Assembly (NCBI GenBank): GCA_963921795.1 | Contig: OY997640.1 | Coordinates: forward strand, 9,755,237-9,819,236 | DNA: 64,000 nt | Direction of reading: 5' to 3' | Origin: Nannobrachium achirus | Lineage: Eukaryota; Chordata; Actinopteri; Myctophiformes; Myctophidae | Shown: positions 1 through 51,500 of the stretch, piece by piece | How positions within the stretch are numbered: the first letter of the stretch is position 1 | Layout: every line of letters starts with the position of its first letter | The notes under the pieces: generated by a model | Databases searched by the model: none | What the model saw: only the letters and a program-made list of their open reading frames with translations | What the model was told of the DNA's origin: nothing | Position numbers and translations under genes: made by a program

Positions 1-3000
1 GACATAGGTCGTTTTGACGCTCCCGTTCCTGGCCTTCAATCTGGTCAAGGTCTCTTGACTGAAACGTTTGTTTTTTGCAGATTTGATCAACGTAGACCAA
101 GGGAACAGTCCGAGTCCCATTTTTGACGCTATCAGCTCGGAGGTTTTACAAGTAAGCAAGTCTCGTAAGATGGGATGCGAACGAGATATCATGTGATTCA
201 TACAGTATTTTTCATCCTTGTACAGCGTCTTCACAAGAGCAACAGGGCAATCTCCCTCTGTTGTGTGGAGTACAACCCCTGTCACGGAAAACCCTGCGTC
301 TAGCTGTACGGTTTCAATCGTGTGTACAGAGTGTACACCAAGAGCTGCTTCAGCCGTATCCAGGTCAACCCATCTTCCTGAGTCGTCGAAACAAATGTCC
401 TTTTTCAGATACAGCACTTTATCTCCTGGTACCAGCTGGTGCCACGGGCAGGTTGTGAAACAGGAAATCTTGTCGGTTTCCAACTTGACACAGTCGCCTC
501 TCATCACACATGCTATAAAGGTATCGGTGACAGCAGAGTCGCAAGGGGATCTGACACTCTTAAAAGCAGTCAACCCTCTAACCTTCACAGAAATTGACGT
601 TATCTGGTTTCTGTCTGTAGTGTGGGTGAGCGCCACGTATGTTTTCTTAGCCACGTGGCAGTACACAGAACAGCTGTTTTCATACTCCAAGTTCACCCGT
701 CTGTTTTTCGCAAACGCACTCGTCACTTCAACGAGTCCATGATCAGGCACATCTGCGTAATACAAGGGGTATCCGTCTTGTGTGCGCAATTCGTCTGCAG
801 CCTTGATCAGAGGAGTGACCCCGTTGCCTTTTGTTATCATGTACATACGATCAAGGGTGTCTGTGACCAAAGCTCTTTTCACGTATGCCAGGAAGTCAGG
901 TATCTGCTCGTTTGAGCGCATAAACTTGTCTTCTATGGCTCTCTGAGCTCGACAAGCAAAGTCCCGCAAGTCTCCCATGTTAAGATCACACTCATTCAGC
1001 TTTTGATACCTTGAGCAGTCGGATACATCCTTTTCTGTGACAGTGTTAGGATCGTAGCCTACAGATACCATCACACTATCCGTGTCACCGTACACCACGG
1101 GAGAGCTGTACTGGAAAAACTCGGCTACGCAACTGTTCACAACCGCTATCTGTTGCCTTCCGTGACCAGAGATGAGCGGTCCGCAAGGGTATGGAGCAGT
1201 ACCGTAGAAAGAATTGGCCATGACCTTGCATTCACTCTCTTGAAGTTTGTAATACGCTCTTGTGGCGTTGTCAATGGGGAGTTTTAGTTTTTTCTTAAAA
1301 TCAGCCCGCTTGTCCAAATAGTATTCCACTGATGAGGCCAACACGGCCGGCGCACGGACAAACTGTCCTGTCTTTCTGTCAAACTTCAAGATCAGAGTTG
1401 CAAATTCAAACCCTTCCTTTTCCCAGCAGTAACACACCCAATCCGACAGATCATGCGGGAATGAACGGGGTGGCCATGGGATTGTTGTCTCTGGTGAAAT
1501 GTTCAGCGCACACATGATTGAAGGGTACATACTTGAGAAGTCGAAAGATAGCTCCAATCCCATACCGGGATTCCCGTAGTGCAAACCCGTCAAAGGATCG
1601 CACACGGAGCCTCCTTTCCACAAGTCTGTCTTGAGTCTATGACTAGACAACTCGTTGTTCACTCTCAACCGGCAGTCTTCCGTCGCGCCAAGTGGCCCGG
1701 CTCTGGCTCTCATGTTATCCATGGTGAATTTTAACTGAGGCAGCTGCACAGAATGGATGCTTTGCACAAAACCTCCAAAGTTGTCTCCTCTGCCATGGAC
1801 TATAACATCAATGTTGAGTGTAGTCCTGCATCTGTGAAACAGCGCAGAGACCGGTTTCAGCACTTTTGCTATTCGAGCGCAAAGCTGAGAGTCCACCAAG
1901 TTGTACACAAGCACAGCGAATAGGCTCGTGCCTCCACTGCTGATCATCTCGTCCATTTTTCCGTACTCTACATCTGCCAGCTTGCGGATTTTTTTTCGGT
2001 CTTTCAAATGTTTGTTATGCAGTTTTCTCTCTTTGTCAATGATGAACGGTGCAACCTCGTTCAGTCTCATGCTTAAACATGAAAATTTTACATCTCTGAT
2101 TCCTGCCATTCTGTACAAATCCACTATGTTCATTCCACAGCTGTTGATTTTAAAATGCCCCAGTTTTCCTTTGTCTTTGTTGAACTGATTGATCAGCATG
2201 GAGATGCGATGCAGCTTGTGGCTGGCGTAGGGTTTTGTCAAACACTTGCCAATTTCTTCTAGCAAGGTTCTGTACATGTCCAGATATTGGACAGTTTCAA
2301 ACTGAAGGGTGTACATCAGTTTGCTGCTGCCGGTGTCAACGTCTGATATGAACAGCTTGTTCCACATTTCCTCCAGTGCACGACAGCGGGTTTTATCGAA
2401 GTTTTGAGTTTTGCCATTTGCGTAAAAGAAAACTCTCTGTTGAATGACTCTAATGTCAAACTCTGCGTTGTACACGTACAGCAGCTCAATCTGATGCGAT
2501 GAAAGCATTCTCAACAGGACTTCAATGAGTTCCAGTTCACTCGAGCAGGCGTGGAAATGTATCCTGCTCGGGTCAGCGATTCCGGCGTTTTGCGCCAGCT
2601 CGGTGTCCTGTTCCAGGTCGGGGCCCCTGATTTTCTTTGTGTTGTACAACACAAACAGATCTTTTCTGTGATGTTGCTTGTTGAGTTTGGGGATGTGTGT
2701 GTTTAACATCACGAGTGACACGCACGTTATTTCGTGCTGCTGCCCAGGCATGTCTATAGCAATGTTTGGTATCGAGACGTCTTTACTGCCTTTCACTTTT
2801 GTTCTTGCTGCATTGTACGTGATATTCAGACGATCCCTGTATACTTTTAGCTCACGCACAGTGTTTTCTGTGCAGTACGGATGCCTGTAGGCGAAATGAG
2901 CCGGCATCAGAGTTTTGTCTTTGTACTTGTCGTCGTAGACAGTCTCGATGTCAAGACAGGCAACTTTGTAAAAGTTGTCCATGTGTTTGCTATCAAAAAC

Positions 3001-3875: not shown

Positions 3876-6800
3876 ATGCCGGCAAACAAGCAAACCGGAG
3901 TTCCTACGTTTACTCGCAATTGTCTACCACATAGAGATAAAACTACCGCAGCAATCAGCACTGTCAAACTGCCAGCGAACAGAGCTGCCCTATTTTTAGC
4001 TTTGGAGTCGGACACTCTACACGATAGGAAGTTTGACGAACTCACGTTCAGCAGCTTGTCCGATGAAGACAAGGCCGCTTTCCAGTTGCTGCTGTACGTA
4101 ACTTATTGCTGCAAAGGTCATGTTTTTCAGGTGACGCTCGAAAACCCCGACTTTGGCACGATGTCTCCGGCTGTACGAGAAGATTTTGCTCATGGGAGAC
4201 TTTTTTGCTTTGTGTTAGACATGGACACTGAAAGCACCGGGTTCTCGTTTGACACCCCTGGGGTAAGAGATGCCATACCTTGTGGTCAAATCTATGACAT
4301 GTTAGGTATCTCAAACAGTGCTGCTGCAGAAGATCGAGTGAATGAAAATCTTCTCGAAGAAGTGTACAAGGCTTTTATGAGATTGCAGTTGGTCAGGAAA
4401 AAGGCCACTTCGTTGAACAATGCTATGGTGGGCATGAGAGACAGTAAAAATGAGCTCGCGCCGTACTTTGACTGGGTAGACATTGCAAGGGACACGTTGA
4501 ACTCTGAGAAGATTGACAAAAAGAAGGTGAAGGAGTTGCAGGGATCCATGCTCACGCCTTGTACATCGAGGCAACATGTGGAGATTCCAAACACAATCCG
4601 TTACATGAACCTGAAGACGTTAGAGCGATCTCTGTGTAAACACAGCGACAGCTCGGCGAAAGGGAAAGGTGAAGGTTTACTCAACGACATTGTCTCCAAG
4701 CTGACGGTGGGGAAGCTGAAACGGCAAAATGTTATGCGGCGGTATCTGGGTGAGGTTCCCAGCGACAAAGCTTTTTTGGCTAAGCTGATGACATTTGCCC
4801 GAGAGCTGGACTCGAACTCTGGTGCTGCCGTCTCGGTGAACGGGCTTGTGGTGTTCGAGTACGACATGGCAAATTTGGTGACCGTCGAACGCCCCGACTC
4901 GTTTGTGAACTTCATGATTCACAAACACGTTCCAGTGTCACGCGATCGCACACTGCAGGCTCTGAATGATATCAGTGCTACAAAGATGACACGCTCGCTC
5001 GCTCGCATGTACCTCGACCAATGTGATTGCAAAGACCGAAACGGAGCCTGTCAAGGAGACTGTCAAGCGGCCTACTGTTGCTTCTACAACACATACGCTC
5101 AGCATCCCTTCACAGTGAGCCAAGGGGATCACACTTACTACTTTGCTCACCTGTACCCGTACCTGGGCAAACTCGAGCGACTGAGTAAAGAGATGAAAGT
5201 GAAATGCAAAAACAGTCGCACGCAATTTGAGAGCATAGCCGACATGGTGTTTAAGGTCTTGACCAAGAACCGCTTTGGTGACGAAAACGGGCTATACCAG
5301 GGGCTTCACGATGTCTTGGGAGGAAAAATGAAAAATTCTTACTTGTCGATTGGACAGAAATTTCCTGAGCTGCACGAACAACTGTATCTGCTGCCGGCAG
5401 TCGATGCAGCAGAAAACTACACAACGGCAGACGAGTTGGCTCCCGTCAAGCTGTACGACCAAGCCGTCGTCAGATATCTGTTCAGCGATCATCTGAACGT
5501 AGGGAGACTGTACCAGGCCTCTACCACGTTCAACTACATCATCACCAACACGGCTCCCAGATACACAATAGAGCGCATCATGCTCTTCAACACAGCTGGT
5601 CCCGGTGAGGGCAAGAGCTACGCTAATTACGTGCTAACCAGCCAGTTCAAAAGAGTCCCTAACTGCATTGAGCTGTTGACGTCTTTCACGCCGCAAGCCT
5701 TCAAGTACACAATCAGGAGAGAGTCCTGTATTGTAATGATAGATGATGGGCACATAACGCATGAGAAAAACATAAAGCACTCTGACCAAGAATCCAACGT
5801 CATCCCCAATGTGTTCAAAAATCTGCTTGATCAAGGTATGCTTGCAAGCCAAGTGGTCATGAGGGATCCCACGAATGGTAAAATAGACACCGTCAAGGTG
5901 AACTCTGTGAACAACTGCGGGTTCGTGTGGAACACCAACACCATGAACTTTGTGAGCAAAGCCTGGGAAGATCGGTGTGTAGTGATGAAGTCCGAGTTTC
6001 CAAAGCCTATAGTGTGCACAAGAAGCACTAAGCAAATTCTTGACACGGTGGAACGATGTAGCATGGATAGGGTTGTTCCTGTGTGGTTGTACAGACAGAA
6101 CCTGATTCAGTCTGCAACTATGATTGCGGAATCTGAGGTTGCGCAGTTCAGCGAGAAGTTTGACAAAGCTAGGGACGCTTGCTTAGCCGCGCTGCAGGCA
6201 AGTCACATCTTGTGCATTACCAGTATGAGCCACAGGCTTTCTTTCTGCATCAACCAATTGGTCTACGCAGAAGCGCTGAAGCTCGCCTGTCACTTTGTGT
6301 TCGACATTTGGATACCACCGTGGACAAAGATTCCGGGCACGTGCCATCCGACCATTAAGTCTTTTATGACCCAGCTCAACAAAAACAGATTGGATGCGCT
6401 CGACAAGCTTTCGTTTGGGCAGATATGTCTGGACACCAACTCGGTGTCCAAACTCTGCGCGGCGGCCTGTCTGCCTGACATTGTACCCAGAGTTGTAGAC
6501 ACTCAAGGTAGGTTTGCCTGCGACATTCTGGCTCGAGTTTTGGTCAGTGTTTACAGCCGCAAGCTCAAGCACAAAATAGAAGATCGCTTTCTGTCGATCT
6601 GGGGTATTGACACGCTGTTCGTCACAAACACCCGGCAGCAAGATAAAGGAGCGCACGAAATGCTACAGCTGTGCGCTTCGTGTAATGTGCCTGCTCGAAA
6701 GCCGGACAGGATGGTCAAGCTGTGTACGTACACACTAACAACAGCGCTTTCGTCACAGCACAACAGACGAGGTCATCAGCCTGCTGCGAGAAAAGTGAAA

Positions 6801-7757
6801 TCCGTTAAAGTCCCCCTGGAAGCGGTCTATGACATGTGCGCAATGTACATGGCCGACTCGCACAAGCTTTTCTGGGAACAGGTTGAGACAGCAATGGTCA
6901 ACGCGTATCAGACTGGAAGTCATGACTCGGACAATGCCTTTGCGCAGTGCACCCCGGACCAGAGCGAAGTTGTGAATCTGTCGTTTCGGTTGGACTTCAA
7001 CGACAATCCGCTGTGCTCTTTGATACTCAAGTCTACAGCCGGGTTTGAGCCTTTGAACGAACTGTCGTTCACAAAATGCACCTTTGATGAGTTCTCGTTC
7101 CAGTGTGCGGCGCCCGTGTACTACGGCGGTGTCCTAGTGCACGCGCTGGGAGACAATGCTCCGCCTGAAGCGCACAATGCGCAACACATGGGCGAATTCG
7201 CCTTGGGGCCGACAGGTACTTTCCATGGACCGAGATTGAGTGTGCACTCTAGCAACTACACTGGTGTGCCTGTAGAAAATATGAGTTCTTTTTGCAACAC
7301 TCGAACCGTGTACCATCAAGACACGATTCGTCTCACGGTTGACAAGCAAGACAGACAATTTCTGCACAGTCTTGAAAAAGATTGGGAGTGGAAAGATGCG
7401 GCTGAAGTGTTCAATAAAATCAACTTTAGTAGCGCTCCTGTTACCGTGGACATGCTGAAGGACGACTATTCCTTAACTATGATGGCTCTGAAAGGTGAAG
7501 ATCCGAGTAAATGTCCTGCAAGTTCACACAAATTGAAAAAGCTCATCCGCGCACTGCTCATGGCAAAGGATGGCAAGGCCGCGATCGCTCGCCGAGGCGG
7601 ACTGCGTAAACGGGTATTTGACGATGCCAACTCTACCACGGATCGTTCAGAGAGCGCTCCTGAGGCTCGATTGCAAGCAATCAGGCGAGTGATCCAGTCG
7701 ACGAATAAGCGCCGTCTGCCTCAGAAAGCTACTGTGTCTAAAAGGAGAAAAATGTAG
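3876..7757 (+). CDS. Large SF3/D5-like P-loop NTPase, putative replication helicase
   Basis: 1293 aa, starting at AACATGCCG. A Walker A motif GPGEGKS is at residues 575-581, Walker B CIVMIDDGH at 618-626, an SF3-style motif C/sensor GFVWNTNT near 682-689, and a basic AWEDRCVVM segment about 20 residues later that resembles the arginine-finger region of D5/SF3 helicases. A VLDMD segment (D115, D117) near the N-terminus looks like the hDhD of archaeo-eukaryotic primases, but I cannot confirm that. A Cys-rich stretch (about residues 387-408) precedes the ATPase. The C-terminus is very basic (RKR and KRRK clusters), fitting nuclear localisation. The position next to the polymerase supports a replication role. 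It could instead be one of the conserved alloherpesvirus proteins of unknown function; a similarity search is needed to name it. AATAAA follows the stop by about 70 bases. Confidence 0.7.
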   Translation: MPANKQTGVPTFTRNCLPHRDKTTAAISTVKLPANRAALFLALESDTLHDRKFDELTFSSLSDEDKAAFQLLLYVTYCCKGHVFQVTLENPDFGTMSPAVREDFAHGRLFCFVLDMDTESTGFSFDTPGVRDAIPCGQIYDMLGISNSAAAEDRVNENLLEEVYKAFMRLQLVRKKATSLNNAMVGMRDSKNELAPYFDWVDIARDTLNSEKIDKKKVKELQGSMLTPCTSRQHVEIPNTIRYMNLKTLERSLCKHSDSSAKGKGEGLLNDIVSKLTVGKLKRQNVMRRYLGEVPSDKAFLAKLMTFARELDSNSGAAVSVNGLVVFEYDMANLVTVERPDSFVNFMIHKHVPVSRDRTLQALNDISATKMTRSLARMYLDQCDCKDRNGACQGDCQAAYCCFYNTYAQHPFTVSQGDHTYYFAHLYPYLGKLERLSKEMKVKCKNSRTQFESIADMVFKVLTKNRFGDENGLYQGLHDVLGGKMKNSYLSIGQKFPELHEQLYLLPAVDAAENYTTADELAPVKLYDQAVVRYLFSDHLNVGRLYQASTTFNYIITNTAPRYTIERIMLFNTAGPGEGKSYANYVLTSQFKRVPNCIELLTSFTPQAFKYTIRRESCIVMIDDGHITHEKNIKHSDQESNVIPNVFKNLLDQGMLASQVVMRDPTNGKIDTVKVNSVNNCGFVWNTNTMNFVSKAWEDRCVVMKSEFPKPIVCTRSTKQILDTVERCSMDRVVPVWLYRQNLIQSATMIAESEVAQFSEKFDKARDACLAALQASHILCITSMSHRLSFCINQLVYAEALKLACHFVFDIWIPPWTKIPGTCHPTIKSFMTQLNKNRLDALDKLSFGQICLDTNSVSKLCAAACLPDIVPRVVDTQGRFACDILARVLVSVYSRKLKHKIEDRFLSIWGIDTLFVTNTRQQDKGAHEMLQLCASCNVPARKPDRMVKLCTYTLTTALSSQHNRRGHQPAARKVKSVKVPLEAVYDMCAMYMADSHKLFWEQVETAMVNAYQTGSHDSDNAFAQCTPDQSEVVNLSFRLDFNDNPLCSLILKSTAGFEPLNELSFTKCTFDEFSFQCAAPVYYGGVLVHALGDNAPPEAHNAQHMGEFALGPTGTFHGPRLSVHSSNYTGVPVENMSSFCNTRTVYHQDTIRLTVDKQDRQFLHSLEKDWEWKDAAEVFNKINFSSAPVTVDMLKDDYSLTMMALKGEDPSKCPASSHKLKKLIRALLMAKDGKAAIARRGGLRKRVFDDANSTTDRSESAPEARLQAIRRVIQSTNKRRLPQKATVSKRRKM

Positions 7758-8626: not shown

Positions 8627-8725
8627 CTTATCCACACGTTTACAAAGCAAAGTTTGGAACTGGAAGAATCGTAAATGAACATTAATAATTCGAAATAGTT
8701 CTTGGGGAAGAGCCTGAGCTGCGCC

Positions 8726-8733: not shown

Positions 8734-8770
8734 CGCTTGCGCCCGAGAAGTAGTTGACAAAAACGCTATC

Positions 8771-19140: not shown

Positions 19141-19207
19141 CAGTATTTTTCGCACTATTAAAAATATTGCTTTACATCATTCTCTGTATTGTTTCATTTC
19201 ACCACTC

Positions 19208-20188
19208 ATGACCATGGCTTCCAAGGCAAGGTCTGCAAAAGCGGTTAATAAGCCGCTCATCCCTGACAGGGTCAAGTATATGTACAAACCAAGTGCCATC
19301 AGAAACGCCAAAGATCGAGTGGTTGAAATCATCGGTAAAAAGAAAAAGAACACCACGCCTGTTCCGGATACAACCTACGAGACAGCTAAGCTTGTGCACG
19401 CTCTGTGCAACGCAGCCCTCACCGACTCCTGGAATGATGAGTGTGAGCAACTCATGATTGCCAACCTCGCAGTCAGAGAACACCATAAGGCCCTACTGTC
19501 TCACAGTTTATTTGTGACCATGGTAGGTACTCTGGCCGCGAAGGCACTCGAGGAGGTGAGTGTAAAACTAACAGTGCCTAAACCTATCGACCTGTTGAGC
19601 GATCGCTACTACATCAGAGATATCATTTGCCACGACTCAAGCAAGACCAGCGTCGTGGAAGTTGCTTCCTACTCTGGGCTTATGGCATTGCATATGGACA
19701 AACTGACTCTGGCTAAAAAGCCAAATATGGAAAAGCTACTGAAAGACCTGACTGATGGTAACAAGGAAGATGACATCAAGACCATGATGGCCAACTTTGG
19801 GTTCAAACACCATTATGAACACAACCGGCACCATCCTGAGTATTACTGTGGCAAGTCAATGGACAACAGCCAGGTGGTGCAGGCTGTAGTGGATGGCCTA
19901 GCTTGCATTCTGGAAAGAAAAAATGTGGCTTCGATCAAAGAGTGGCTGGACAGCTTCTATGTACAAAGATTCAAAGGAGGAAATCAAGTTCTTGCCCAGA
20001 ATGTGCTCCAGGCTTTGGCTGAAACACTCACTGAAAACGACTTTCTCCATCTGATGGGCTTCAAAAAGTCCATCCAAATGCTCATCGGAGAGTCTCCTCT
20101 TTGGAGCAAAATTATCATGTCTGTTGCATGTAAAGAGAACGCCCCGGCTGATGAGACCATCACAGATTTCACCGGCTGTTGTTTTTAA
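19208..20188 (+). CDS. DUF5662-like HD-type protein
   Basis: 326 aa from the ATG at 19208; the ATG at 19214 (ACCATGG) has the better initiation context. Residues 142-146 read HDSSK and about 60 residues later HHYEHNRHHPEYY (208-213 within HHPEYY). This pair of histidine-rich motifs with a Y/E-rich middle part matches the pattern I know from DUF5662, a family related to HD phosphohydrolases and found in phages and large DNA viruses. A metal-dependent phosphohydrolase activity, possibly on nucleotides, would be the first guess but is inference. The N-terminus is Lys/Arg-rich. AATAAA follows at 20232. The ORF overlaps nothing else; the open frame continues back to 19103 without ATG. Confidence 0.65.
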   Translation: MTMASKARSAKAVNKPLIPDRVKYMYKPSAIRNAKDRVVEIIGKKKKNTTPVPDTTYETAKLVHALCNAALTDSWNDECEQLMIANLAVREHHKALLSHSLFVTMVGTLAAKALEEVSVKLTVPKPIDLLSDRYYIRDIICHDSSKTSVVEVASYSGLMALHMDKLTLAKKPNMEKLLKDLTDGNKEDDIKTMMANFGFKHHYEHNRHHPEYYCGKSMDNSQVVQAVVDGLACILERKNVASIKEWLDSFYVQRFKGGNQVLAQNVLQALAETLTENDFLHLMGFKKSIQMLIGESPLWSKIIMSVACKENAPADETITDFTGCCF

Positions 20189-26899: not shown

Positions 26900-26955
26900 T
26901 AGCTCACATGAGCAGTTGACTGTGTTGGTTTCTTTCAGTGTGGGTACCGTCATAT

Positions 26956-30560: not shown

Positions 30561-30568
30561 ACACAATC

Positions 30569-41696: not shown

Positions 41697-44600
41697 ATGA
41701 GACTGCAGTCTCGTTGTATATTTCTTTCCGCGGCAATATATCGCTTGGCCGGTTGGCTCAACTGGTTGCAAATGGATTGTACGTGCCATGCGCTTACGTT
41801 TCAGAACGACGCAGAAGAGGACCCGCAGTCATGTACATTATGCCGAGATGCAGGAAAAATACAAGATGACATTGTCACTCAAACCCAGGCAACCCGACCT
41901 ATTCCCTTCACCGAAGCCTTAACTGGTGCGATGGTACCGTATGTGCAAGTGTTAGATTCTTACGGCACATCTGCAGCGGCTACCCCGTTATACTATGTCA
42001 CCAATAATATACTGTGCGCGGTTGAAGGAGACGTGCACACAAAGGACGTTCCTCCGTACGGACCATGGTTGACAGATTTCGACTCTTGTTTGAAGTCATA
42101 CTGCAGATTAAGACAAGCGGGAACGGTCTGTCTGTGTATCCCAGAGCTTAACAGAATTGTGCTTGAACAGAAAAACGACGATGGGCTGCTGATGACACTG
42201 AATAAATGCGTGCTGAACGACGGCTGTGTTAAGCAAGCCTTGCAGTCGTTCGGCCCCTTTGCGTGTGATGCTATATTCGCACCTGTCATGGGGACAATAC
42301 TTCGCTCACAGTGGATCACTTCCCTCAAACGTGAGCGCGATGCCGTCAACGGACTCAAACCCGGCTGGGCGTCTGAGTTTTATGATCGTACAAACGTACC
42401 GTTGGGTACCGGTAACAGACGCGTCTTCTCGAGCAGTTACAGTTCTCACGTATCCAGAACGTCCCATGGTGATCCCGATGTGATCGTGAAAGGTGTTTTG
42501 CACAAAATGAGACTGTGTGGTTACACACCTTGGTCAGCAGTGCAAGCTCTGCGCTGTTTCGAAGACAAGCTCCTTGCTCTAGCTTGCCCCGAATGCAAAA
42601 CTCAAATTGCATCCATGTGCGCCTATCTGGCCGAAAGCGCAGCGGTTGAAGCGTCAAGAGCTCACGATTGGTTGGTGCGAAACGAAGCTGTGATTCAATT
42701 GTGCTGGACGTTGAGTGTCCTGAAATCTGTCATGGCCACAGAGAACAAGCAGCTGCGCGCATGGGCAAGATCCGCGATGGCTCACAGTTTAAGTTATGTC
42801 TCTGTATGCGATACAATCGGAGAACTTCAAAGAATCGTCGCCGTATACGCGATCGACCACGTGGTCGACTCCGATGTCACGGAAAGCACTTATCGTGTCA
42901 GCATCAACAACCCCCCTGTACCACAGCGCATCGTTTCAGCTTTAACCAATGCATGCGAGGGTCGCCAACCCTGGCGTCCGTGTCGTGTCGCAAGGCCTAT
43001 GTCGGAGTTTTCGGTGGCAAAGGTTTTGAAGAGTGCAACACAATTCGATGTCGACCGAGCGCCTCACGTTGCCAGCTCTGTTGCTGAAGTGATAGTTGCG
43101 TGTTTCCCCGGTGTGCCGGAGTGTGCCCTCGCGTGCTTAAATCTGAAAGCTCCAGAGTCCCCAAGGTGTATGTGCAAACTTTGGCCCGCGTTTGTAAACG
43201 GTACACGAGCGTGTTACGCGCTGTTTGAGAACTTGAATTTTCCTGCATCTTCGACCGCGCAGTACTTGCTAGAGACTCTAGCTAAAGCCTGGAGACTCGT
43301 ACCCGACGAGACAATCTGTCATTGGTTGCCGACGACGGCTGGCGATAACATCGCTTTGACAAAGAGTAACTTTGACTCGCAGCTTCTTAGTCCTGTGAAA
43401 ACCTTGCTGCGACATGGGATCATCGACGAAGCTGAGCGAAAACACATCATCACGGTTCTAACAAAAGGCGCCTTGCCTGCGTTTGCAGGCATCCAGCAAA
43501 GCATACCTGATCGTATCACAAGTTTGACGCTGTCGGTGGCCTTTGCCGCATGCGGCAAACGGATTTCGCTCACAGAGACCGCTGCAACCGGTAAGCCCGG
43601 AGCTGTCACAGTCACAGAGGCCGGGCTGCTGTATTATGCGGTGTGGTACGTTCTGGTATACATGCCTGCAATTGCACTGCAGCCATCGTTAAAGAGCTAC
43701 TTGACGCTTAGGGGTTCGGTCGCCGATAAATGCATATGTGCAGGGTTGACGGTGACAGACGCGAACACCGTTCACAAAGACCTTTATCGTAGATATCTCA
43801 ACGTCAATGTTTCACGGGACAGCTCGCAGATATTCCAAGCGATGACTTTATTTTTTAAAGATCTGCTGGATGAAGACACTCTGGCTTACGTGGTTCGCTT
43901 ATGTGTGCCTGTTACCATCGCACAGCTTCCCTTCGCGAAAGAGCGCGACATTGTCCCGGGCACTGTGACAAACGCACTGGACGCCAGAGACGCATGGCTT
44001 GCCAAATTAGAGGATCTGCCGGATGACCCACCGACGTTTCGATACGTGGGTCGGATAGAGGGAAGGGTGCACAGTAGCATAAACGGTATGCTCGGGATAG
44101 CTCCGTATAGGGGCTCGTGTTCACTAAGCAGACCCAAGCAAAACTTTGACCCTTGGTATGACACGCTGATCCGAGTGAGTCGCAATGCCAGCTGTGTCAG
44201 TCTCGACGTCGAAGACGAAAAGCTCACAGAAAGCACCCCGTTGTCTTCAGGACCGCCCGTGCAGGTCACAGCGACCAGTCCTCGTTCAGTCGAACGGTCT
44301 ACGTCGCCTCAGACTGTGCTCATTGTGAAAACGGACTCCAGTTCTGTTCTTACAGAAAATAACAGCCAGCAACCCGGTTCCGATACAGAATGTAACAGCC
44401 AGCAACTCAGTTCCGAGACGAAACTTAACAACCAGCAACCCGGTCCTGTTTCTCTGCACACAGAATGTGGCAACCAGCCGGCCACTTATGTTTTGAACCC
44501 TAACCCGATTTCCGTCGAATCCCCTGCTGTAATTGCAGGGCAGACCACTGACGAGTCAACGGCTTCGATGCGACTGTGTAAGGCTTTGACAGTGTGCACA

Positions 44601-45620
44601 AGTTGCAAATCCAAACGTTTGGATTTGAGTTGTATAACGACTGCAGACTTTACTGAGAAATACACTTCTAAACCCGTCAGCTACTCTCCTGCGTTGAGTG
44701 AACCATGCATGGTTGCATTTGAAGACACGAAATGTTTCAAAATACACCCAGTATCGAATTCACAATGGCACAAATTCCCTTTGGCTAATGGGTATGATAA
44801 TCTACTCCCTGCTCTTTGGACCGTCTTTGTAGGTCACAACATCATAAACGGAGCCCCGAGCTGCCCTGAACCTTCATCTGCAGAAGCTCTCGCTGTAATG
44901 GTACACTTGACAGCTAAGGCTTTGGATCTGAATTTTCCTGTCTGTCACAGTATAGACAACTTAAGTGGTGCGTGCGAGAAGGAGAAGGATTTCGCATGCG
45001 TAATAGCAGTCTGCACGGGACTGTTCAACCTGAGTATGAGGCTGTATACTGAAACGCACACCTTTGTCTTCACAAACACAAAGTACACATCTCGGCCGCC
45101 CTACGATCTTGTGTTAAAAAACCAGAAGTGGTATGTAAAAACGCGCAATACCAACACTGCTTTCAAATGCAAAATTCCCATAGAAAGTCAGACAAACTGC
45201 TATCACGGAAAGGAAATCGCAGCGTATCTCAGACTTAACAACTTGCAATTGATTAAGGTAGCCAGCGACCACTATTGCGGATTTCACACCGTATCTAACC
45301 TTTGCGACTTGGGCAATCGTGCAACCCAACGGTCTCGCGATGATATACTTGACACATTTGTGGGTTACGTTGAAAAACGTAAGCTCGACCCCGAAATTGC
45401 AGCGTACATACAATCAGCGGGTGTAGTAGACATTAGCAAACTGAAAGACAGACTGTCCGCATCGAATAGATGGCTAAGTTTTGACGAAGTTAGTTTGATC
45501 TTGAAAGCATATGGTAAGACGCCATGCGGTTTGACTGTCTATTCTTTTCCCATATACAACAGTCAAAGCTCTGTGTTTCTGTGTGCAAATAATCATTTTG
45601 AGCCTATAGTAGCTATGTAG
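41697..45620 (+). CDS. Large tegument-like protein with C-terminal OTU-like protease fold
   Basis: 1307 aa from the ATG at 41697; an ATG at 41772 (MDCTC) is an alternative. Residues about 870-960 are low complexity with repeated NNQQPG/CNSQQ units. The last 130 residues contain DHYCGFHTVS (D1191, candidate nucleophile C1194), a WLSFDEVSLIL helix and NNHFEPIV (candidate catalytic H1300). This D-x-x-C...H-F-E-P pattern is that of OTU-type cysteine proteases that remove ubiquitin. An OTU-like protein is known in cyprinid herpesviruses. The rest is unassigned. A deubiquitinase role is likely by motif but unproven. Confidence 0.65.
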   Translation: MRLQSRCIFLSAAIYRLAGWLNWLQMDCTCHALTFQNDAEEDPQSCTLCRDAGKIQDDIVTQTQATRPIPFTEALTGAMVPYVQVLDSYGTSAAATPLYYVTNNILCAVEGDVHTKDVPPYGPWLTDFDSCLKSYCRLRQAGTVCLCIPELNRIVLEQKNDDGLLMTLNKCVLNDGCVKQALQSFGPFACDAIFAPVMGTILRSQWITSLKRERDAVNGLKPGWASEFYDRTNVPLGTGNRRVFSSSYSSHVSRTSHGDPDVIVKGVLHKMRLCGYTPWSAVQALRCFEDKLLALACPECKTQIASMCAYLAESAAVEASRAHDWLVRNEAVIQLCWTLSVLKSVMATENKQLRAWARSAMAHSLSYVSVCDTIGELQRIVAVYAIDHVVDSDVTESTYRVSINNPPVPQRIVSALTNACEGRQPWRPCRVARPMSEFSVAKVLKSATQFDVDRAPHVASSVAEVIVACFPGVPECALACLNLKAPESPRCMCKLWPAFVNGTRACYALFENLNFPASSTAQYLLETLAKAWRLVPDETICHWLPTTAGDNIALTKSNFDSQLLSPVKTLLRHGIIDEAERKHIITVLTKGALPAFAGIQQSIPDRITSLTLSVAFAACGKRISLTETAATGKPGAVTVTEAGLLYYAVWYVLVYMPAIALQPSLKSYLTLRGSVADKCICAGLTVTDANTVHKDLYRRYLNVNVSRDSSQIFQAMTLFFKDLLDEDTLAYVVRLCVPVTIAQLPFAKERDIVPGTVTNALDARDAWLAKLEDLPDDPPTFRYVGRIEGRVHSSINGMLGIAPYRGSCSLSRPKQNFDPWYDTLIRVSRNASCVSLDVEDEKLTESTPLSSGPPVQVTATSPRSVERSTSPQTVLIVKTDSSSVLTENNSQQPGSDTECNSQQLSSETKLNNQQPGPVSLHTECGNQPATYVLNPNPISVESPAVIAGQTTDESTASMRLCKALTVCTSCKSKRLDLSCITTADFTEKYTSKPVSYSPALSEPCMVAFEDTKCFKIHPVSNSQWHKFPLANGYDNLLPALWTVFVGHNIINGAPSCPEPSSAEALAVMVHLTAKALDLNFPVCHSIDNLSGACEKEKDFACVIAVCTGLFNLSMRLYTETHTFVFTNTKYTSRPPYDLVLKNQKWYVKTRNTNTAFKCKIPIESQTNCYHGKEIAAYLRLNNLQLIKVASDHYCGFHTVSNLCDLGNRATQRSRDDILDTFVGYVEKRKLDPEIAAYIQSAGVVDISKLKDRLSASNRWLSFDEVSLILKAYGKTPCGLTVYSFPIYNSQSSVFLCANNHFEPIVAM

Positions 45621-46012: not shown

Positions 46013-47089
46013 CTAAGTGACTTTATACATGTCAGCGAAATCCTCCCTGATCTTCTGTGGGAGTTCAGACTGCTCTAGACCGTGTTGAGGATTAAAGTCT
46101 AAGATGTACAAGCCACGTTCGTCTGTGGCAAAGCAACGATCTCCCACCACGTGAAAGCTCATCGACTGTAGCCCATAACAACCATTAGGAGATGGGCCCT
46201 TTATTCCCTTTGGGGAAACCTTTTTCCAGGAGAAGGTGTTCGGATTGAATTTCCACATGTCCTCATGGACTTCTAAGTGAGTATCCCGTGCATAGTTCAT
46301 ACCACCAAATATGTACAGCTCTCCCTTGTAGGCAAAGGCTGAATGACACCAGCGGTCTTTCGGAAGAGGCTGTGCAGAAGACCGACTGCTCCAGCAGTTG
46401 GTAAGCGTGTCAAACACTCTCATTTCATTGTCCCCATAGGTCTCCATGCCATTGCGGTCGGTGTAGTTGTAATTCATTCCCCCGAATACAAACATCTTTG
46501 TCCCGATGATGGTGGCAGAGTGACGTAGTGTGGCACGCACTGTAGTGCCACTGGTGTTAACTAAAGACCAGACCATTGTGTCAGTGTTCAACGTGTGGAC
46601 GTCACTGGTGTACACCAGTGTGTTGTAGAGCTGTCCTCCGTGTATATACATGACCTTCCCCAAGACACAGGCGGAGTGGTAGTACCTCCTCTCCGGAACA
46701 GCCCCAGAAACCTGAGGTTTGGACCATCTGCCGGTTTCGACATCGTATGCACGAAGGACCCCACGAAACGTATTCTCTTGCTCGTTATTCTCCAGTGTAC
46801 CCCCCCAGAGGTAATCGTCATTCTCCAGTGTACCCCCCCAGAGGTATATGGTACTGTCTATCGACACAAGCGTGAAGCCCGATCCGGTGGGGGCACTTCC
46901 TTCTCCTCCTCTGGTTGTCCCTGGGAGCCTTTCCCACTTCAGAGTATCTGCGCGTAAGACATGCACAGCAATGGGGAGAATTCCATATCGGTCCTCTTGG
47001 AAACAGTACAAGTCCTGACCCACAGCCACAGAAGCACATAAGTCTCTAAAATGGGGTTGTTGCCGCCGACTCGCTGTCCAGCACAACAT
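46013..47089 (-). CDS. KLHDC3-like kelch-repeat protein, host-derived
   Basis: 358 aa from ACCATGTTG at 47087-47089; the longer frame starts with GTG. It is a kelch beta-propeller with repeated blades (SACVLGKVMYIHGG, SATIIGTKMFVFGG, SAFAYKGELYIFGG) separated by W-containing strands. Wording of the blades, the FNPNTFSWKK region and the ILDFNP segment match vertebrate KLHDC3, a Cullin-2 substrate receptor that reads C-terminal degrons. It lacks introns, as expected for capture from mRNA. A 27-bp duplication (within 46790-46850) repeats YLWGGTLEN. The C-terminus (SELPQKIREDF) differs from the host Cullin-2-box region, so ligase binding is uncertain. It could redirect or block degradation of C-degron substrates; inference. 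Confidence 0.8.
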   Translation of the reverse strand: MLCWTASRRQQPHFRDLCASVAVGQDLYCFQEDRYGILPIAVHVLRADTLKWERLPGTTRGGEGSAPTGSGFTLVSIDSTIYLWGGTLENDDYLWGGTLENNEQENTFRGVLRAYDVETGRWSKPQVSGAVPERRYYHSACVLGKVMYIHGGQLYNTLVYTSDVHTLNTDTMVWSLVNTSGTTVRATLRHSATIIGTKMFVFGGMNYNYTDRNGMETYGDNEMRVFDTLTNCWSSRSSAQPLPKDRWCHSAFAYKGELYIFGGMNYARDTHLEVHEDMWKFNPNTFSWKKVSPKGIKGPSPNGCYGLQSMSFHVVGDRCFATDERGLYILDFNPQHGLEQSELPQKIREDFADMYKVT

Positions 47090-47589
47090 GGTGCCGGAAA
47101 ACACAGTGGTTGTGATAAGCCCGTGTTGCAGGACGAGACTTGTTTTATTCCCTCGGGGAGGAGGCGGGTCCAGAGAGACAGCAGCTACCTTGTTTTAATC
47201 ATTGCATGTACGTGTCACTGCGTACAGTAAAATCATATTTGAGTCAAGATCAAGCTTGTGTAACATTACAGGCAGGCAAATGTTCTTCTTACAAATGACC
47301 TATGCAAGCTCACTAGTTATTTCCACCAGCGATAATATCATCTTCAAATCATCACAATCGTCATCAAATCATTATTCGTATGTAGAATAAAACGGTACTT
47401 GAAAAAGTAAGATCTTTGACAGTGCGAGTCCAACACTCTGCCTTTTTAACACAGCCGGTGATGTATTTGTTTGATTTCTCGCACCTTGTGCCGTCGCAGT
47501 GGCACATACCATGACCGAAGGTCTGTCGATGGTGCTATGAGCGAGGTCGATGGTGCTAGTCGAGCTGTATGAGCGAGGGTCAACAAAGC
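47090..47589. other. Spacer without a visible gene
   Basis: Mixed AT-rich sequence between the kelch gene and the FIIND relic. No long frame, tRNA or clear promoter motif was recognised. A short direct repeat (GTCGATGGTGCTA) occurs near 47525-47560. Confidence 0.4.
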
Positions 47590-48692
47590 GACTCTGGGTA
47601 TGGAGACGCCGCAATCCTCCGAAACAAGTTCAAAGTTCTCGTTTCTGTCAAGTATGGTCAGGGTTACATTTCTAGGTGGCTTGTGAAGAAACATTTTGAA
47701 CCATATTGTCTTTAGGCACAACCCGAGTTGGTTTAGATTCCAATTGAGCCCTAATTTCACTTGACATGCTCACGGTCGAACGAGAAAGTGTGTACATGTG
47801 ATCATCTCAAAGCAAGAATTCTCCTTGTGTTGGGATAAACATCTCATGATCATCCGGACGGTATTCTTTCACCGTTCTCATCATGTCTCTGATTACAGCA
47901 TTGGTCGGCTGTATGTAAACAGACATAGAGCTTGAGACAGTATCCGTGACAGGAGCTGCGTAGAGCAGTATCGCCTTAGCCTTGAACGGAGCATTGGGGA
48001 AGCTAGGCTTTTGAACGATACCACAGTTCAACTCACTGGCGTCTTCAACACAGACGGTGACACAGTCTTTGTTTCCCTTGCACAAGGAGAAAACCGCTCC
48101 CGTAGTTGATCAAATCGATAACCGCCGGGAAGCTATGCCAGTAAACAAAAGTCTTTTTTTTTTTGAAGGAAACACGCTTTACATGATGCAACAGATTCTT
48201 TTCGATTGGTCATTGGGAGCACTTGGGGGGTCTACTTCAAGACGTTTGACTGCTGCATTTTCAATCAATTTGATCACAAATTCCAATGCTGTAAACCGGA
48301 TCGTCAGGAAGAACGGATTTGTTCGCCGACTCAGGCAGAACTTTTATCGTGTCACAACTCAGAGCTTTTGAGTCCGTTTCCTCTTGCTGCAGTGTTTTCA
48401 CAATGCGGTATGTTACTTCACAGTGCGGTATGTGAATGAGAGCCAAGGTCTTCTCCTCGCAATTGATGTTGAACAGCGGCCCCGCTGTGTTGACGTTGAT
48501 CTGCTGTATGGTGTTGTTGTAATCGGACCAGTTAAGGATACTGTAAAACACATGTCCAGGACCAGCCATTTCGAACACCAACCCTGTGACCTTACATTGG
48601 TACTGGCCGGGCTGGGTGCATTGGATCCAGTAACACTCATCCTCCCTGGAGGTACTGATGGCAGGCATGAAGATGCAAGTGTTGCTCGCCAT
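47590..48692 (-). pseudogene. Broken FIIND (ZU5-UPA) domain gene, NLRP1/CARD8-like
   Basis: The 5' part (48692-48261) is an open frame from AACATGG. It has the ZU5 half of a FIIND domain: YWIQC, GQYQCKVTGLVFEM, a W in a Y..LNWSDY segment, AGPLFNINCEE and LIHIPHCEV. The UPA half follows in pieces: one frame shifts near 48290, a UPA core with ILLYAAPV and MSVYIQP reads from about 48085, a stop interrupts at 47807-47809, and a last block with VTLTILDRNE is in another frame near 47650. FIIND is the self-cleaving module of the inflammasome proteins NLRP1 and CARD8 and is common in fish NLR genes. The gene begins with its own start codon as a stand-alone domain. It is no longer able to encode the full domain as it stands. 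Confidence 0.7.
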
Positions 48693-48904: not shown

Positions 48905-51500
48905 TTAACCCTCGCGGTCCCCCAGGGCGAGCTCCGCGAAGGAGGGCCCTGTCGCAGTCGGGGCAGCGCAGGACGGAGCAGGACCGGCACAGGCCGACGG
49001 CGCAGGCGACGCAGCGCGAGGTGGTCTTCCTGTCGGCGCCGGGCGGACAGGCCCCGCACCTGGTCCTGCCCCGCGGGCCGGGGGGGCGCGCGGCCGAGGC
49101 GGAGGGCCCCCCGTGGAGCGCGGCCCGCGCCCTGGCCTCCCCCTTGGCCTGCCTCACCATGAAGGCGGCCGCCGGGGCCCTGGGCAGCCGGGCCCTGCGG
49201 CACAGCAGCGGGGCCACCATGTCGCGGCCGACGCGCTCGAGGAAGAGCCTGCGCGAGTCGCGTCTGCCGGAGGCCCAGCCGGGGCGCAGCTCCCTCCACA
49301 GCACCAGGGCGTTGTAGGCGGACACGTCCAGCACGTTGTGGAAGACGACGACGGGCCAGCGCCGCGTGGCCCTCCTGCAGCTGTAGGCGGCCACCAGCTT
49401 GTCCAGGTTGTCGACGCCGCCCTTGCAGCGGTTGTAGGCGAGCACGACCAGCGGCTTGCGCCGACGGCTTCCCTCGTCGACGTCGGGGGGCACGTGCGCG
49501 GTGCTGAGCACGAGCACGCTCTTGTCCTTCTTGGCGGCGTAGCAGACCAGGGTGGCGTCGCGGGTGAAGGCGAAGGCCGAGGCGAAGGGCTCCAGGCCGC
49601 CCTTGGTGGGGGGCCTTCCCCTGCCGCGGCGGGCGGCGGGGGGCTCCTCTCCCCCGCGGCGGCGGGCGGCGGCGGCGGCGACGAAGGAGCGCCTGAGCCT
49701 GAGCTCCAGGGCCGAGGCGGGCAGCTCGGGCCTGTTCTTGCGCACGGTGCCCACCAGCCTCAGGTCCCGCTCGCGCAGCAGCCGCAGGGCCAGGGGGAGG
49801 GAGGTGAAGAAGTTGTCGCAGGTCACCGTGCGGCCCCGCAGGCCCTCCGTCAGCTCCGTCACCACGCGCTCGCCCAGGGTGCGCCCGGCGGGCCCGACGA
49901 CGGGACGGACGAGGTCCTCCCCGCTCTTGCCCGTGTACAGCTGCATGGCGCACGCGTAGCTGGACCTGGCGTCGCAGGCGACCCACGTCTTCAGGCCGTA
50001 CCGGGCGGGTTTGCTGGGCATGTACTGCCTGAAGGAGCAGCCGCCTGCGTAGGGGAGAGGAGAGGGAGAGGGAGAGGGAGAGGGAGAGGAGAGGGAGAGG
50101 GAGAGGGAGAGGGAGAGGGAGAGGGAGAGGAGATCAGAGGAGAGGAGAGGAGAGGAGAGGGGATCAGAGCGGTGAGGAGAGGGGATCGGAGCGGAGCGGA
50201 GGCTAGAGCGGAGCGGAGACAGGGCAGAGGAGAGGACAAGCGCAGAGTAGCGAACGACAGAACGGAAGATCGGAGCGGAGCGGAGACGGGGCAGAGGAGA
50301 GGAGAGGACGAGCGTAGAGTAGCGAACGACAGAACGGAAGATCGGAGCGTAGCGGAGCGGAGCGGAGACAGGGCAGAGAAGAAGAAGAGGACGAGAGCAG
50401 AGCAGAGGAGAACAGAACAGAGGATCGGAGCGGAGGACGAGAGGAGAGGGGAGGACAGGCCGGCGGCGGCGGCGGCGGCGGCGGCGCGTACCTCTGAAGG
50501 GCACCAGCTGCTCGTCCACCGTCACGTCGGGCCCCGGGTCGTACAGCAGAGGCAGCCGGGCGGTCCACGCGTCCCACAGCTCCCTCACGGCCGCCAGCTT
50601 GTCTCCCCCGGCGGCCTCGGCCCTCGCCTTCCTGGTGGCCCTGTCGTCGAAGCGCAGCGCCGCCGACAGGCGGAAGAACCTCTTCAGGGGCATGGCGGCC
50701 CTGAACACGTGCCTGCCGCAGTCGCGGTCCCACAGGCTGCGGCAGGCCTCCCCTCTGGACCTGTACACCCCCGAGAGCAGCAGGAGGCCCACGTAGCCCA
50801 GGAGCTCCGTCTCGTCGGCGTCCCTCCAGCCGGAGCCGGAGCCGGAGCCGTCGTCCTCGTCCTCGCCTTCGCTCTCTTCTTCTTCTCCTTCTTCTTCTTC
50901 TTCTTCTTCTTCTTCTTCTTCTTCTTCCTCTCCCTCGTCTTCTCCTCCCTCGTCCTCTTCTCCTTCGCCCTCGTCGTCCTCTTCGTCCCCGTCCTCCCTT
51001 TCCTCTTCGCCCTCGGCCCCTTCCCCGTCGTCCTCCTCTTCCTCCCCTTCCTCCCCTTCCTCCTCTTCCTCCTCTGCCTCCCCGCCGCCGGCCGCCCCTC
51101 GCGCCCTGAGGCGGCCCTCCCTGTTGGTGTGGGCCAGCACCGACGACAGGATGGCGGGCGTGAGGAACGCTCGCACGGCGGACGTGGGGTCCGTGGCCAG
51201 CCGCCGGGCCAGGGCCGTGGGTCCCCGCGGCCCCGACGGCCGGCTCCTGCCCGGCGGCAGCCTCGTCCGCGGGTCCAGGGACCACCTCGTCGTGCCGTCC
51301 CTCGACGGCAGGACCGTCTCGTCCTCCTCTCCCTCCTCCTCCTCCTCCTCCTCTTCTTCCTCCTCGGCCTCCTCTTCCGCCTCCCGCGGACGTGCTCGGC
51401 CCCGCTGCGGAGCTCCCCCGCGCCTGGGCCTCTCCTCGGAGGCGCGCCGGGACCCGGGTCTTTTCGACCCCCCCGGGGGACCGCGAGGGTTAATGTCCAT
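48897..51500 (-). CDS. piggyBac-family transposase, two exons
   Basis: Exon 1 is 51500-50492 and exon 2 is 50044-48897; the 447-bp intron has a GTACGC donor and a CTACGCAG acceptor. Spliced, it encodes 718 aa with the family block LVPFRG joining to CSFRQYMPSKP at the junction. The DDD catalytic aspartates are in VTVDEQ, VTCDNFFTS and KGGVDNLD. The C-terminus is a Cys-rich zinc domain (CGAC, CVAC, CRSC, CPDC). Several acidic Glu-rich tracts lie in the N-terminal third, together with the usual DNA-binding start. It would cut and rejoin DNA at TTAA. It looks complete. The ATG is five bases outside the right TTAA and the stop lies beyond the left one, so the frame reads through both terminal repeats. 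GC content is far above the viral genes. Confidence 0.9.
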   Translation of the reverse strand: MDINPRGPPGGSKRPGSRRASEERPRRGGAPQRGRARPREAEEEAEEEEEEEEEEEGEEDETVLPSRDGTTRWSLDPRTRLPPGRSRPSGPRGPTALARRLATDPTSAVRAFLTPAILSSVLAHTNREGRLRARGAAGGGEAEEEEEEGEEGEEEEDDGEGAEGEEEREDGDEEDDEGEGEEDEGGEDEGEEEEEEEEEEEEEEGEEEESEGEDEDDGSGSGSGWRDADETELLGYVGLLLLSGVYRSRGEACRSLWDRDCGRHVFRAAMPLKRFFRLSAALRFDDRATRKARAEAAGGDKLAAVRELWDAWTARLPLLYDPGPDVTVDEQLVPFRGTRRRRRRRRRPVLPSPLVLRSDPLFCSPLLCSRPLLLLCPVSAPLRYAPIFRSVVRYSTLVLSSPLPRLRSAPIFRSVVRYSALVLSSALSPLRSSLRSAPIPSPHRSDPLSSPLLSSDLLSLSLSLSLSLSLSSPSPSPSPSPLPYAGGCSFRQYMPSKPARYGLKTWVACDARSSYACAMQLYTGKSGEDLVRPVVGPAGRTLGERVVTELTEGLRGRTVTCDNFFTSLPLALRLLRERDLRLVGTVRKNRPELPASALELRLRRSFVAAAAARRRGGEEPPAARRGRGRPPTKGGLEPFASAFAFTRDATLVCYAAKKDKSVLVLSTAHVPPDVDEGSRRRKPLVVLAYNRCKGGVDNLDKLVAAYSCRRATRRWPVVVFHNVLDVSAYNALVLWRELRPGWASGRRDSRRLFLERVGRDMVAPLLCRRARLPRAPAAAFMVRQAKGEARARAALHGGPSASAARPPGPRGRTRCGACPPGADRKTTSRCVACAVGLCRSCSVLRCPDCDRALLRGARPGGPRGLTG
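48905..48923 (+). repeat. Left TTAA and 15-bp terminal inverted repeat
   Basis: TTAA (48905-48908) followed by CCCTCGCGGTCCCCC (48909-48923). A second TTAACCC occurs eight bases further out (48897-48903). Confidence 0.9.
48909..51489. mobile_element. piggyBac unit, 2581 bp, flanked by TTAA
   Basis: Both ends carry the identical 15-bp inverted sequence CCCTCGCGGTCCCCC and each is bordered by TTAA (48905-48908, 51490-51493), the target duplication of piggyBac. The unit consists almost wholly of the transposase gene. It lies at the border between viral-type genes and fish repeats. It may be a self-contained transposon, or one end of a larger virus-transposon composite whose other end lies left of the window. 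Confidence 0.9.
50045..50491 (-). repeat. Transposase intron filled with GA/TC microsatellite
   Basis: The intron consists of GGGAGA, GGAGCGGA and GGCGGC repeats. Its length, 447 bp, is a multiple of three and it has no stop codon in the transposase frame, so an unspliced transcript would insert 149 residues rather than end. Confidence 0.8.
51475..51493 (-). repeat. Right 15-bp terminal inverted repeat and TTAA
   Basis: GGGGGACCGCGAGGG (51475-51489) is the exact reverse complement of the left repeat and is followed by TTAA (51490-51493). Confidence 0.9.

What the first reader, a model, noticed from the sequence alone, without database searches (positions are those of the whole stretch)
1..51493. 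Alloherpesvirus genome segment joined to a piggyBac transposase in a fish chromosome
Herpesvirus polymerase, UL52-like primase and UL5-like helicase, all intact, lie in one array that ends at a complete piggyBac unit, beyond which fish introns and repeats start. The Teratorn class of virus-transposon composites is known; this copy carries its own set of host-derived cargo and appears young.
Basis: partly seen in the sequence, partly recalled or inferred. Interest (0 to 1): 0.9.

Follow-up and report, generated by a model that had tools for sequence, protein, structure and literature searches.

The report
Herpesvirus provirus framed by twin transposons
A fish chromosome carries a young, 168,000-base herpesvirus genome with a copy of the same jumping gene at each end, and the differences between its sister copies suggest that it spreads as replicating viral DNA rather than by simply jumping from place to place.

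Summary
Window 1-51493 is the right-hand 51.5 kb of a Teratorn-like alloherpesvirus/piggyBac composite. The whole copy is 167,848 bp, TTAA to TTAA, with two complete piggyBac units in direct orientation, one at each end. Six more copies were found; all seven right ends stop at the same TTAA with different host DNA beyond, so an assembly join or free virus is very unlikely. The class is known (Inoue 2017, 2018, 2023); the lineage is divergent (helicase about 50% identical to medaka Teratorn).

Two results go further. (1) In 5 of 6 composites the two units differ by 0-1 substitutions, against 2-14 in other left-right pairings (own pairing lowest of 720). Like LTR pairs, this points to insertion from circular or head-to-tail DNA with one unit per genome, not plain cut-and-paste. 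The window's own pair (6 substitutions) is the exception. (2) The transposase frame has no start or stop inside the unit (13 of 13). Viral DNA offers left units a start and right units a stop, so the gene looks whole only in circular or tandem viral DNA (inferred). The primase label was not confirmed.

The parts
1..3636 (-). DNA polymerase, family B (cut by the window's left edge)
   Evidence: Pfam DNA_pol_B 8.4e-21; exonuclease domain 1.2e-4, 22 bits, just below its cut-off of 23
3876..7757 (+). 1293-aa viral ORF, function unknown (P-loop-like motif by eye)
   Evidence: no Pfam match, best PDB match E 0.7; relative beside the polymerase in a diverged provirus on C5
8702..11023 (+).
   Evidence: no Pfam match, no PDB match, fold failed, pLDDT 31.5
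11873..13447 (-). cytosine methyltransferase-like ORF with 54/69-bp repeats
   Evidence: Pfam DNA_methylase 15.3 bits, below cut-off 22; repeats
13556..17497 (+). 1313-aa membrane/envelope-type ORF (type by eye) with an N-terminal TNFR-like cysteine-rich region
   Evidence: Pfam TNFR_c6 2.4e-4, below cut-off
17494..19140 (+). 548-aa secreted/membrane-type ORF (by eye)
   Evidence: open frame; no Pfam match
19103..20188 (+). DUF5662 ORF
   Evidence: Pfam 3.7e-16
20491..21647 (-). chemokine-receptor-like GPCR in two open pieces with GT..AG borders (intron by eye)
   Evidence: Pfam 7tm_1 3e-6 and 8e-5, both below cut-off; sequence
22377..23495 (+). SPRY protein with TRIM-like coiled coil, host-derived type
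   Evidence: Pfam SPRY 4.7e-13; TRIM_CC 0.001, below cut-off
24243..25070 (-). Ig-domain membrane protein, host-derived type
   Evidence: Pfam Ig_2 4.4e-8
26938..28734 (+). helicase-primase helicase (ORF25/UL5 type)
   Evidence: Pfam AAA_19 2.3e-9, Herpes_Helicase at its cut-off of 27 bits; 44 relatives incl. medaka Teratorn and Ictalurid herpesvirus 1 ORF25; tree
29195..30061 (+). capsid triplex subunit, ORF27 family
   Evidence: Pfam VG27 1.9e-33
30569..32104 (+). 511-aa ORF shared with a diverged kelch-bearing stretch in the same genome
   Evidence: 81% DNA identity to a C24 stretch; no Pfam match
34304..40285 (-). 1993-aa viral ORF
   Evidence: open frame; no Pfam match
41697..45620 (+). 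1307-aa viral ORF
   Evidence: open frame; no Pfam match
46013..47104 (-). kelch-repeat protein, last long intact ORF before the transposon
   Evidence: Pfam 8.3e-48; 5 near-identical places incl. the window, and diverged ones
48261..48692 (-). ORF with the first half of a FIIND (NLRP1/CARD8-type) domain; looks like a remnant
   Evidence: Pfam 2.5e-26, NLRP1 structure 6e-5; longest minus-strand open stretch 147 codons in all 7 copies; second half not recognised
48905..51493 (-). complete right-end piggyBac unit, TTAA to TTAA
   Evidence: TIR pair; 13 such units in 7 composites
48909..48923 (+). inner TIR of the right unit (viral side)
51475..51489 (-). outer TIR of the composite, followed by TTAA and host DNA
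48905..51492 (-). transposase frame, one inferred intron (about 50045-50491), open through both TIRs with no in-frame ATG before codon 266
   Evidence: Pfam DDE_Tnp_1_7 4.5e-55, solved piggyBac transposase 6x67 at 6e-56, frame check
51494..64000 (.). host flank: Ig-receptor-like tail exons (by eye, about 51.9 and 52.7 kb), LINE, hAT, minisatellites

Best explanation
This is the right part of a young endogenous Teratorn-like alloherpesvirus. A piggyBac unit sits at one TTAA of the viral genome, between a viral region with a possible start codon and a FIIND remnant. When that genome is circular or head-to-tail, piggyBac transposase cuts at the outer TIRs of two successive units and inserts one viral genome plus two units at a host TTAA. 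Shown: the two-unit structure in 6 of 7 copies, the seven different right flanks, the TTAA borders, the near-identity of the two units within 5 of 6 insertions, and the lack of a start or stop codon inside any of 13 units. Inferred: that new copies arise through replicated or recircularised viral DNA rather than by moving the composite; and that the transposase gene is whole only in circular or tandem viral DNA, because integration leaves the left unit with a viral start but a host stop and the right unit with a viral stop but no viral start, so that transposase output would be tied to the viral rather than the integrated state. My confidence is about 0.97 for the composite, 0.7 for the replicative route and 0.5 for the split-gene switch.
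For: Seven right ends end at the same TTAA with different flanks. Six left ends carry a second unit in the same orientation. An exact TTAA+TIR scan of the genome gives 29 sites = 13 units in 7 composites, a C20 pair and a C18 single, with 0 in the reversed control. Own-pair substitutions are 0, 0, 0, 0, 1 and, for the window copy, 6; other left-right pairings average 6.7 (2-14); the own pairing is the lowest of 720 for substitutions and for indels; no site separates left from right units. From viral divergence between copies about 10 substitutions would be expected in the five matched pairs; 1 is seen (Poisson P 4e-4 on rounded inputs typed by hand). All 6 left units have the same in-frame ATG 16 codons upstream in viral DNA; at right ends 5 of 7 host sides meet a stop first. 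No in-frame ATG lies before index 265 in any of 13 units. In the window unit there is no ATG in any frame in the first 800 nt, against 5.5 expected by base composition.
Against: The window's own two units are not a matched pair (6 substitutions; its right unit groups with C19's). Gene conversion between the two units could mimic matched pairs. An in-frame ATG before a stop has roughly a 1 in 4 chance at any site, and the six near-identical left ends count as one observation. Stray units without virus (C20, C18) also run into the TIR without a start of their own, so a non-AUG start is possible. No RNA, reads or virions were examined. In 4 of 13 units a one-base length difference shifts the C-terminal frame. 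The copies compared are not independent, so the Poisson figure is rough. The two-unit concatemer model itself is already in print (PMC10175614).
Confidence: 0.7

Rival explanations
1. The composite moves by ordinary piggyBac cut-and-paste (with gain of copies through replication timing), and later gene conversion between its two direct units makes them alike.
For: piggyBac transposition of a Teratorn plasmid is shown in print for medaka (PMC5601938, passages seen). The window's own unmatched pair is what an unconverted, older composite would look like.
Against: Conversion would have to cover all 2.6 kb, including repeat lengths, in 5 of 6 composites across about 160 kb, while the viral part still differs between composites.
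Confidence: 0.2
2. The transposase starts at a non-AUG codon or from a spliced outside exon at any site, so the missing start and stop are incidental and integration does not switch the gene off.
For: Two stray units (C20, C18) keep the same frame up to the TIR. In-frame CTG, ACG and GTG codons exist from index 58 on.
Against: The first such codons lie 58 or more codons into the frame. The C20 stray looks close to neutral (7 synonymous against 16 changed codons, 13 gapped codons left out), as expected if start-less units are dead.
Confidence: 0.3
3. Assembly join or contaminating free virus next to a host piggyBac.
For: piggyBac is a repeat, where joins can happen; reads were not available.
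Against: Seven right ends with seven flanks and six left ends, all at TTAA; six of the seven copies lie on contigs of 61-90 Mb, one on a 174-kb contig.
Confidence: 0.02
4. A stand-alone piggyBac happened to insert beside an unrelated old viral fragment.
For: The 2.6-kb unit is itself complete TIR to TIR, and stray units without bordering viral DNA exist.
Against: The same viral DNA lies inside the unit in 7 of 7 copies and a second unit closes the other end in 6.
Confidence: 0.01

Closest known systems
[quoted passage not shown] PMC5601938, PMC10175614)
   Same: Herpesvirus genome between two piggyBac copies; homology from outer TIR to outer TIR and none beyond; linked piggyBac copies described as phylogenetically polyphyletic.
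   Different: Here left and right units are shown to match within 5 of 6 composites, and the frame lacks start and stop in the unit. I had no tilapia DNA to compare.
Medaka Teratorn
   Same: Alloherpesvirus genes, piggyBac transposase, TTAA, CCYT-type TIR; methyltransferase-, CXCR- and TNFR-like cargo.
   Different: Medaka has the transposase inside with TIRs at the ends; helicase 49-51% identical; kelch and FIIND do not occur in its paper's main text.
Exogenous alloherpesviruses (Ictalurid herpesvirus 1, Silurid herpesvirus 1, Acipenser herpesvirus 2)
   Same: Helicase ORF25 family; triplex ORF27 family.
   Different: 26-29% identical helicase, outside the Teratorn-like clade; not usually integrated (PMC5822658).
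LTR pairs of retroviruses (analogy, recalled)
   Same: Two direct terminal copies generated from one at each insertion, so their divergence dates the insertion.
   Different: DNA transposon units, piggyBac transposase, no reverse transcription.

Membership tests
Teratorn-like herpesvirus | Core genes fall in the Teratorn-like clade of Alloherpesviridae | tested here: met
   Helicase only: 36 rows incl. the window and medaka Teratorn against 3 alloherpesviruses, 100/100, midpoint root, long-branch warning
Teratorn-like herpesvirus | All 13 alloherpesvirus core genes | not tested
   Only the right 51.5 kb was annotated; polymerase, helicase and triplex recognised
Teratorn-like herpesvirus | piggyBac transposase inside or beside the virus | tested here: met
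Teratorn-like herpesvirus | Whole composite bounded by TIR and TTAA in host DNA | tested here: met
   6 of 7 copies at both ends; for C19 the right end only, with 271 N in one sample of its far part
piggyBac superfamily | DDE_Tnp_1_7 domain with catalytic aspartates | tested here: met
   (which aspartates are catalytic is recalled; their presence read off the alignment)
piggyBac superfamily | TIR of 12-19 bp beginning CCYT, TTAA target | tested here: met
   15 bp, CCCT
Autonomous piggyBac transposon | Transposase gene complete within the TIRs | tested here: not met
   0 of 13 units have an in-frame ATG before index 265 or an in-frame stop before the end of the unit
Teratorn-like herpesvirus | Transposition activity | not testable with these tools
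   no bench data
UL52-type primase (ORF 8702-11023) | Sequence or fold match to herpes primases | tested here: inconclusive

The most novel reading that the evidence does not exclude
The transposase gene of this herpesvirus is assembled only when the viral genome is circular or head-to-tail: viral DNA gives it start and promoter on one side and stop on the other. Every integration splits it, so the provirus cannot jump and new insertions come only from replicating viral DNA. The matched unit pairs would be the genomic record of that cycle.
Probability: 0.4. Interest if true: 0.85.

Novelty: new variant of a known kind. Interest (0 to 1): 0.62.

Why it matters
Whether Teratorn spreads by viral replication or by cut-and-paste is left open by its discoverers (PMC5601938). 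Paired terminal units give a sequence test, usable on any assembly with several both-end copies, that also dates each insertion. A transposase gene broken by its own integration would be a simple switch that couples a DNA transposon to a herpesvirus cycle. The divergent lineage, with kelch and FIIND cargo, widens the known range.

Tried and rejected
Rejected: assembly join, chance piggyBac neighbour and contamination (see rivals). Rejected: a broken GPCR; the two pieces have intron-like borders (by eye). Rejected: a different piggyBac beside the kelch gene on C425/C7, suggested by weak tblastx matches; the ORFs there are a 1373-aa membrane-type protein and a semaphorin-like protein, named by eye. 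Rejected as uninformative: the primase fold (pLDDT 31.5). Led nowhere: IMG/VR scans for polymerase, TIR and helicase (one search gave two distant loci, not used), the word-based protein search for the FIIND piece (1 candidate, none below 1e-3), tRNA and Rfam scans (nothing), literature searches for viral FIIND and for alloherpesvirus kelch (listings only, nothing relevant seen). Dropped before the helicase tree: 6 of 44 hits (P0036-P0040, P0044); the tree warned of long branches meeting, so the exact place of the lineage is unsure. The host species was not identified; a copy count by helicase and an empty-site search did not complete.

Papers seen: PMC5822658 parts 1-3 of 6 and term finds; PMC10175614 outline, sections 5, 8, 9 and term finds; PMC5601938 outline, sections 7, 8, 13, part 1 of 2 of section 14 and term finds; all others as search listings with starts of abstracts. 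That the start-less unit and the matched pairs are not in print rests on term finds in these three papers and on the listing; their supplements were not readable, and 'matched pairs' itself was not a search term.

Full report
WHAT IS THERE. The window lies at C3:9755237-9819236 of an unnamed 1.66-Gb, 564-contig assembly with contigs of up to 90 Mb. Bases 1-48904 hold a dense array of long open frames. Recognised by profile are a family B DNA polymerase (8.4e-21, cut by the window edge), a herpes-type helicase, a capsid triplex protein of the Ictalurid herpesvirus ORF27 family (1.9e-33), a DUF5662 protein, and host-type genes: SPRY, Ig, kelch, half of a FIIND domain and, below curated cut-offs, TNFR, chemokine-receptor and cytosine methyltransferase-like frames. 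The label may be right, but it is untested.

AFFINITY. A protein search with the helicase listed 44 relatives (only the 7996 candidates sharing most words were scored): one at 82% (unnamed source), medaka Teratorn at 51%, croakers at 46-53%, and three exogenous alloherpesviruses at 26-28% (49% and 26-29% by the multiple alignment). A tree of 39 rows (the window plus 38 of the 44 hits) puts window + the 82% relative on a long branch inside a clade separated at 100/100 from the three alloherpesviruses; its exact place is open and a long-branch warning was given. So it is a Teratorn-like virus of a divergent lineage. For the transposase's C-terminal part the first hit is an unnamed 65% relative, then Aldrovandia affinis (40% over 65% of the query), then pike, salmonids and Sander at 46-49% (236 hits, 120 listed).

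THE RIGHT END. The piggyBac unit runs from TTAA at 48905 to TTAA ending at 51493 with identical 15-bp TIRs. Its transposase aligns to a solved piggyBac-type transposase (6x67; T. ni by recall) over the catalytic region (6e-56) and has one inferred intron with matching phase. Beyond 51493 comes host-type DNA with minisatellites, a LINE fragment and a hAT transposase; tail exons of an Ig-type receptor were read by eye only.

COPIES. The kelch gene gave five near-identical places including the window, two at 93%, and 40 further rows at 73-85% (47 rows; only 40 of 2535 candidates were scored, so lower bounds). I fetched the right ends of the six other places at 93% or more. In all six, homology to the window runs through the kelch gene, the FIIND remnant and the piggyBac unit and stops at the TTAA (within 3 bases by alignment), with seven different flanks in all. 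In the 1.7 kb before the unit the copies differ by 0-5 substitutions.

THE LEFT END. Sparse samples of the window copy and the C15 copy matched in 7 of 10 places at 99.5-100%, and one C15 sample showed a unit starting exactly at its TTAA. Left ends of six copies carry a second complete unit in the same orientation, with different DNA outside and the same viral DNA inside. A genome-wide exact scan then gave 29 TTAA+TIR sites and 0 in the reversed control: 13 units in seven composites, a pair 5.9 kb apart on C20 and one on C18. Outer lengths are 165,481 to 168,985 bp; the window copy is 167,848 bp and its left end lies 116,355 bp left of the window. The C19 copy matches at its right end and in two sampled viral stretches but has no left unit near the expected place; of six further samples of it, one of the three placed opposite C15 samples matched, and one holds 271 N. 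A search with transposase exon 2 found these 13 units (about 100%) and four stray loci at 93-98%; the strays show no match to the viral DNA that borders the units.

TEST OF THE ROUTE. If composites moved as units, left units should resemble left units of other copies. They do not: own-pair substitutions are 0 (C15, C5, C1, C7), 1 (C345) and 6 (C3, the window), other left-right pairings average 6.7 (2-14), and the own pairing is the lowest of all 720 for substitutions (sum 7, mean 34.7) and for indels (sum 13, mean 33.3). No site separates all left from all right units; a simple distance tree joins left with right for 5 of 6 composites. The viral part differs between seven copies by 0-3 per about 1390 bases and 0-4 per about 1315 bases in the shared parts of two sampled stretches, about 0.08% by hand; at that rate about 10 changes would be expected in the five matched pairs against 1 seen (Poisson P 4e-4; rate and pair length of about 12.7 kb typed in, copies not independent). 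Thus in five insertions the two units seem to have split after the copies' lineages had diverged, as expected if each insertion is cut from circular or head-to-tail DNA with one unit per genome. The window's own copy breaks the pattern; recombination between co-replicating genomes, conversion, age or assembly mixing could explain it. With recalled neutral rates of 5e-9 to 1e-8 per site per year, one change in 12.7 kb points to insertion within the last ten thousand years or so; this is rough.

TEST OF THE GENE. In 13 of 13 units the transposase frame is open from TIR to TIR and into the neighbouring DNA; the first in-frame Met is at index 265-273, inside the conserved region. The window unit has no ATG in any frame in its first 800 nt (5.5 expected by base composition). 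On the viral side of the left unit the frame continues to an ATG 16 codons upstream in all six copies, which are near-identical and so count once. On the host side of right units, 5 of 7 frames meet a stop first, and 2 of 7 (window, C1) have an ATG, about what chance gives. The stop of right units lies in viral DNA in 7 of 7 (5 bases in for five, 97 and 265 bases in for two whose frame is shifted by a one-base difference); left units stop 1-377 bases into host DNA. So the virus offers start and stop on opposite sides, and both are present together only when viral DNA lies on both sides of one unit. Whether this start is used is inferred; a non-AUG start is the main rival, and two stray units show the same frame running into the TIR.

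WHAT IS KNOWN. The composite class, the both-ends arrangement and the concatemer model are in print (PMC5601938, PMC5822658, PMC10175614); at least 42 of 53 species with Teratorn-like viruses have piggyBac close to or inside them. The 2017 paper leaves open whether copies spread by viral replication or by cut-and-paste. Words such as start codon, stop codon and promoter, where they occur at all in these main texts, do not concern the native gene's start; one wider search listed nothing on it (listing only); supplements could not be read.

VERDICT. The finding is real and correctly interpreted in its main point; the element belongs to a known kind, with a divergent lineage and two features that make an open life-cycle question testable.

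Noticed in passing
C5:69190000-69198000 (L050) and places on C70, C518, C24, C14, C15:56.14M, C1:80.67M: A second, diverged provirus lineage in the same genome: in L050 relatives of the polymerase and the next ORF (single tblastx segments of about 32-74% identity, first 30 rows shown) beside a kelch gene; tandem kelch genes at the other places, and an 81% DNA match to the 30569-32104 ORF on C24.
   Followed up: partly
C425:20000-29500 (L052) and C7:29624000-29632000 (L051): A third kind of kelch-bearing stretch; in L052 with a 1373-aa membrane-type ORF and a semaphorin-like ORF, both named by eye.
   Followed up: partly
C20:59942839-59948734, C18, C2, C22 (L044-L047): Stray piggyBac units or pieces, 93-98% identical, without the viral DNA that borders the composite units; possibly left behind after loss of the virus between two direct units, like solo LTRs.
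   Followed up: partly
window 48261-48692: Half a FIIND domain next to the transposon, the same open length in all 7 copies; the word-based protein search found no relative. A FIIND gene carried by a herpesvirus would be unusual (opinion).
   Followed up: partly
window 11960-12531: 54- and 69-bp repeats at 98% matches inside the methyltransferase-like frame, unit lengths divisible by three.
   Followed up: no
window 8142-8375: Six 39-bp tandem repeats between two viral ORFs; the array differs in the C1 and C5 copies but not in C19 and C15.
   Followed up: no
window 45100-45620: The end of the 1307-aa ORF resembles an OTU-type cysteine protease by eye; no profile match.
   Followed up: no
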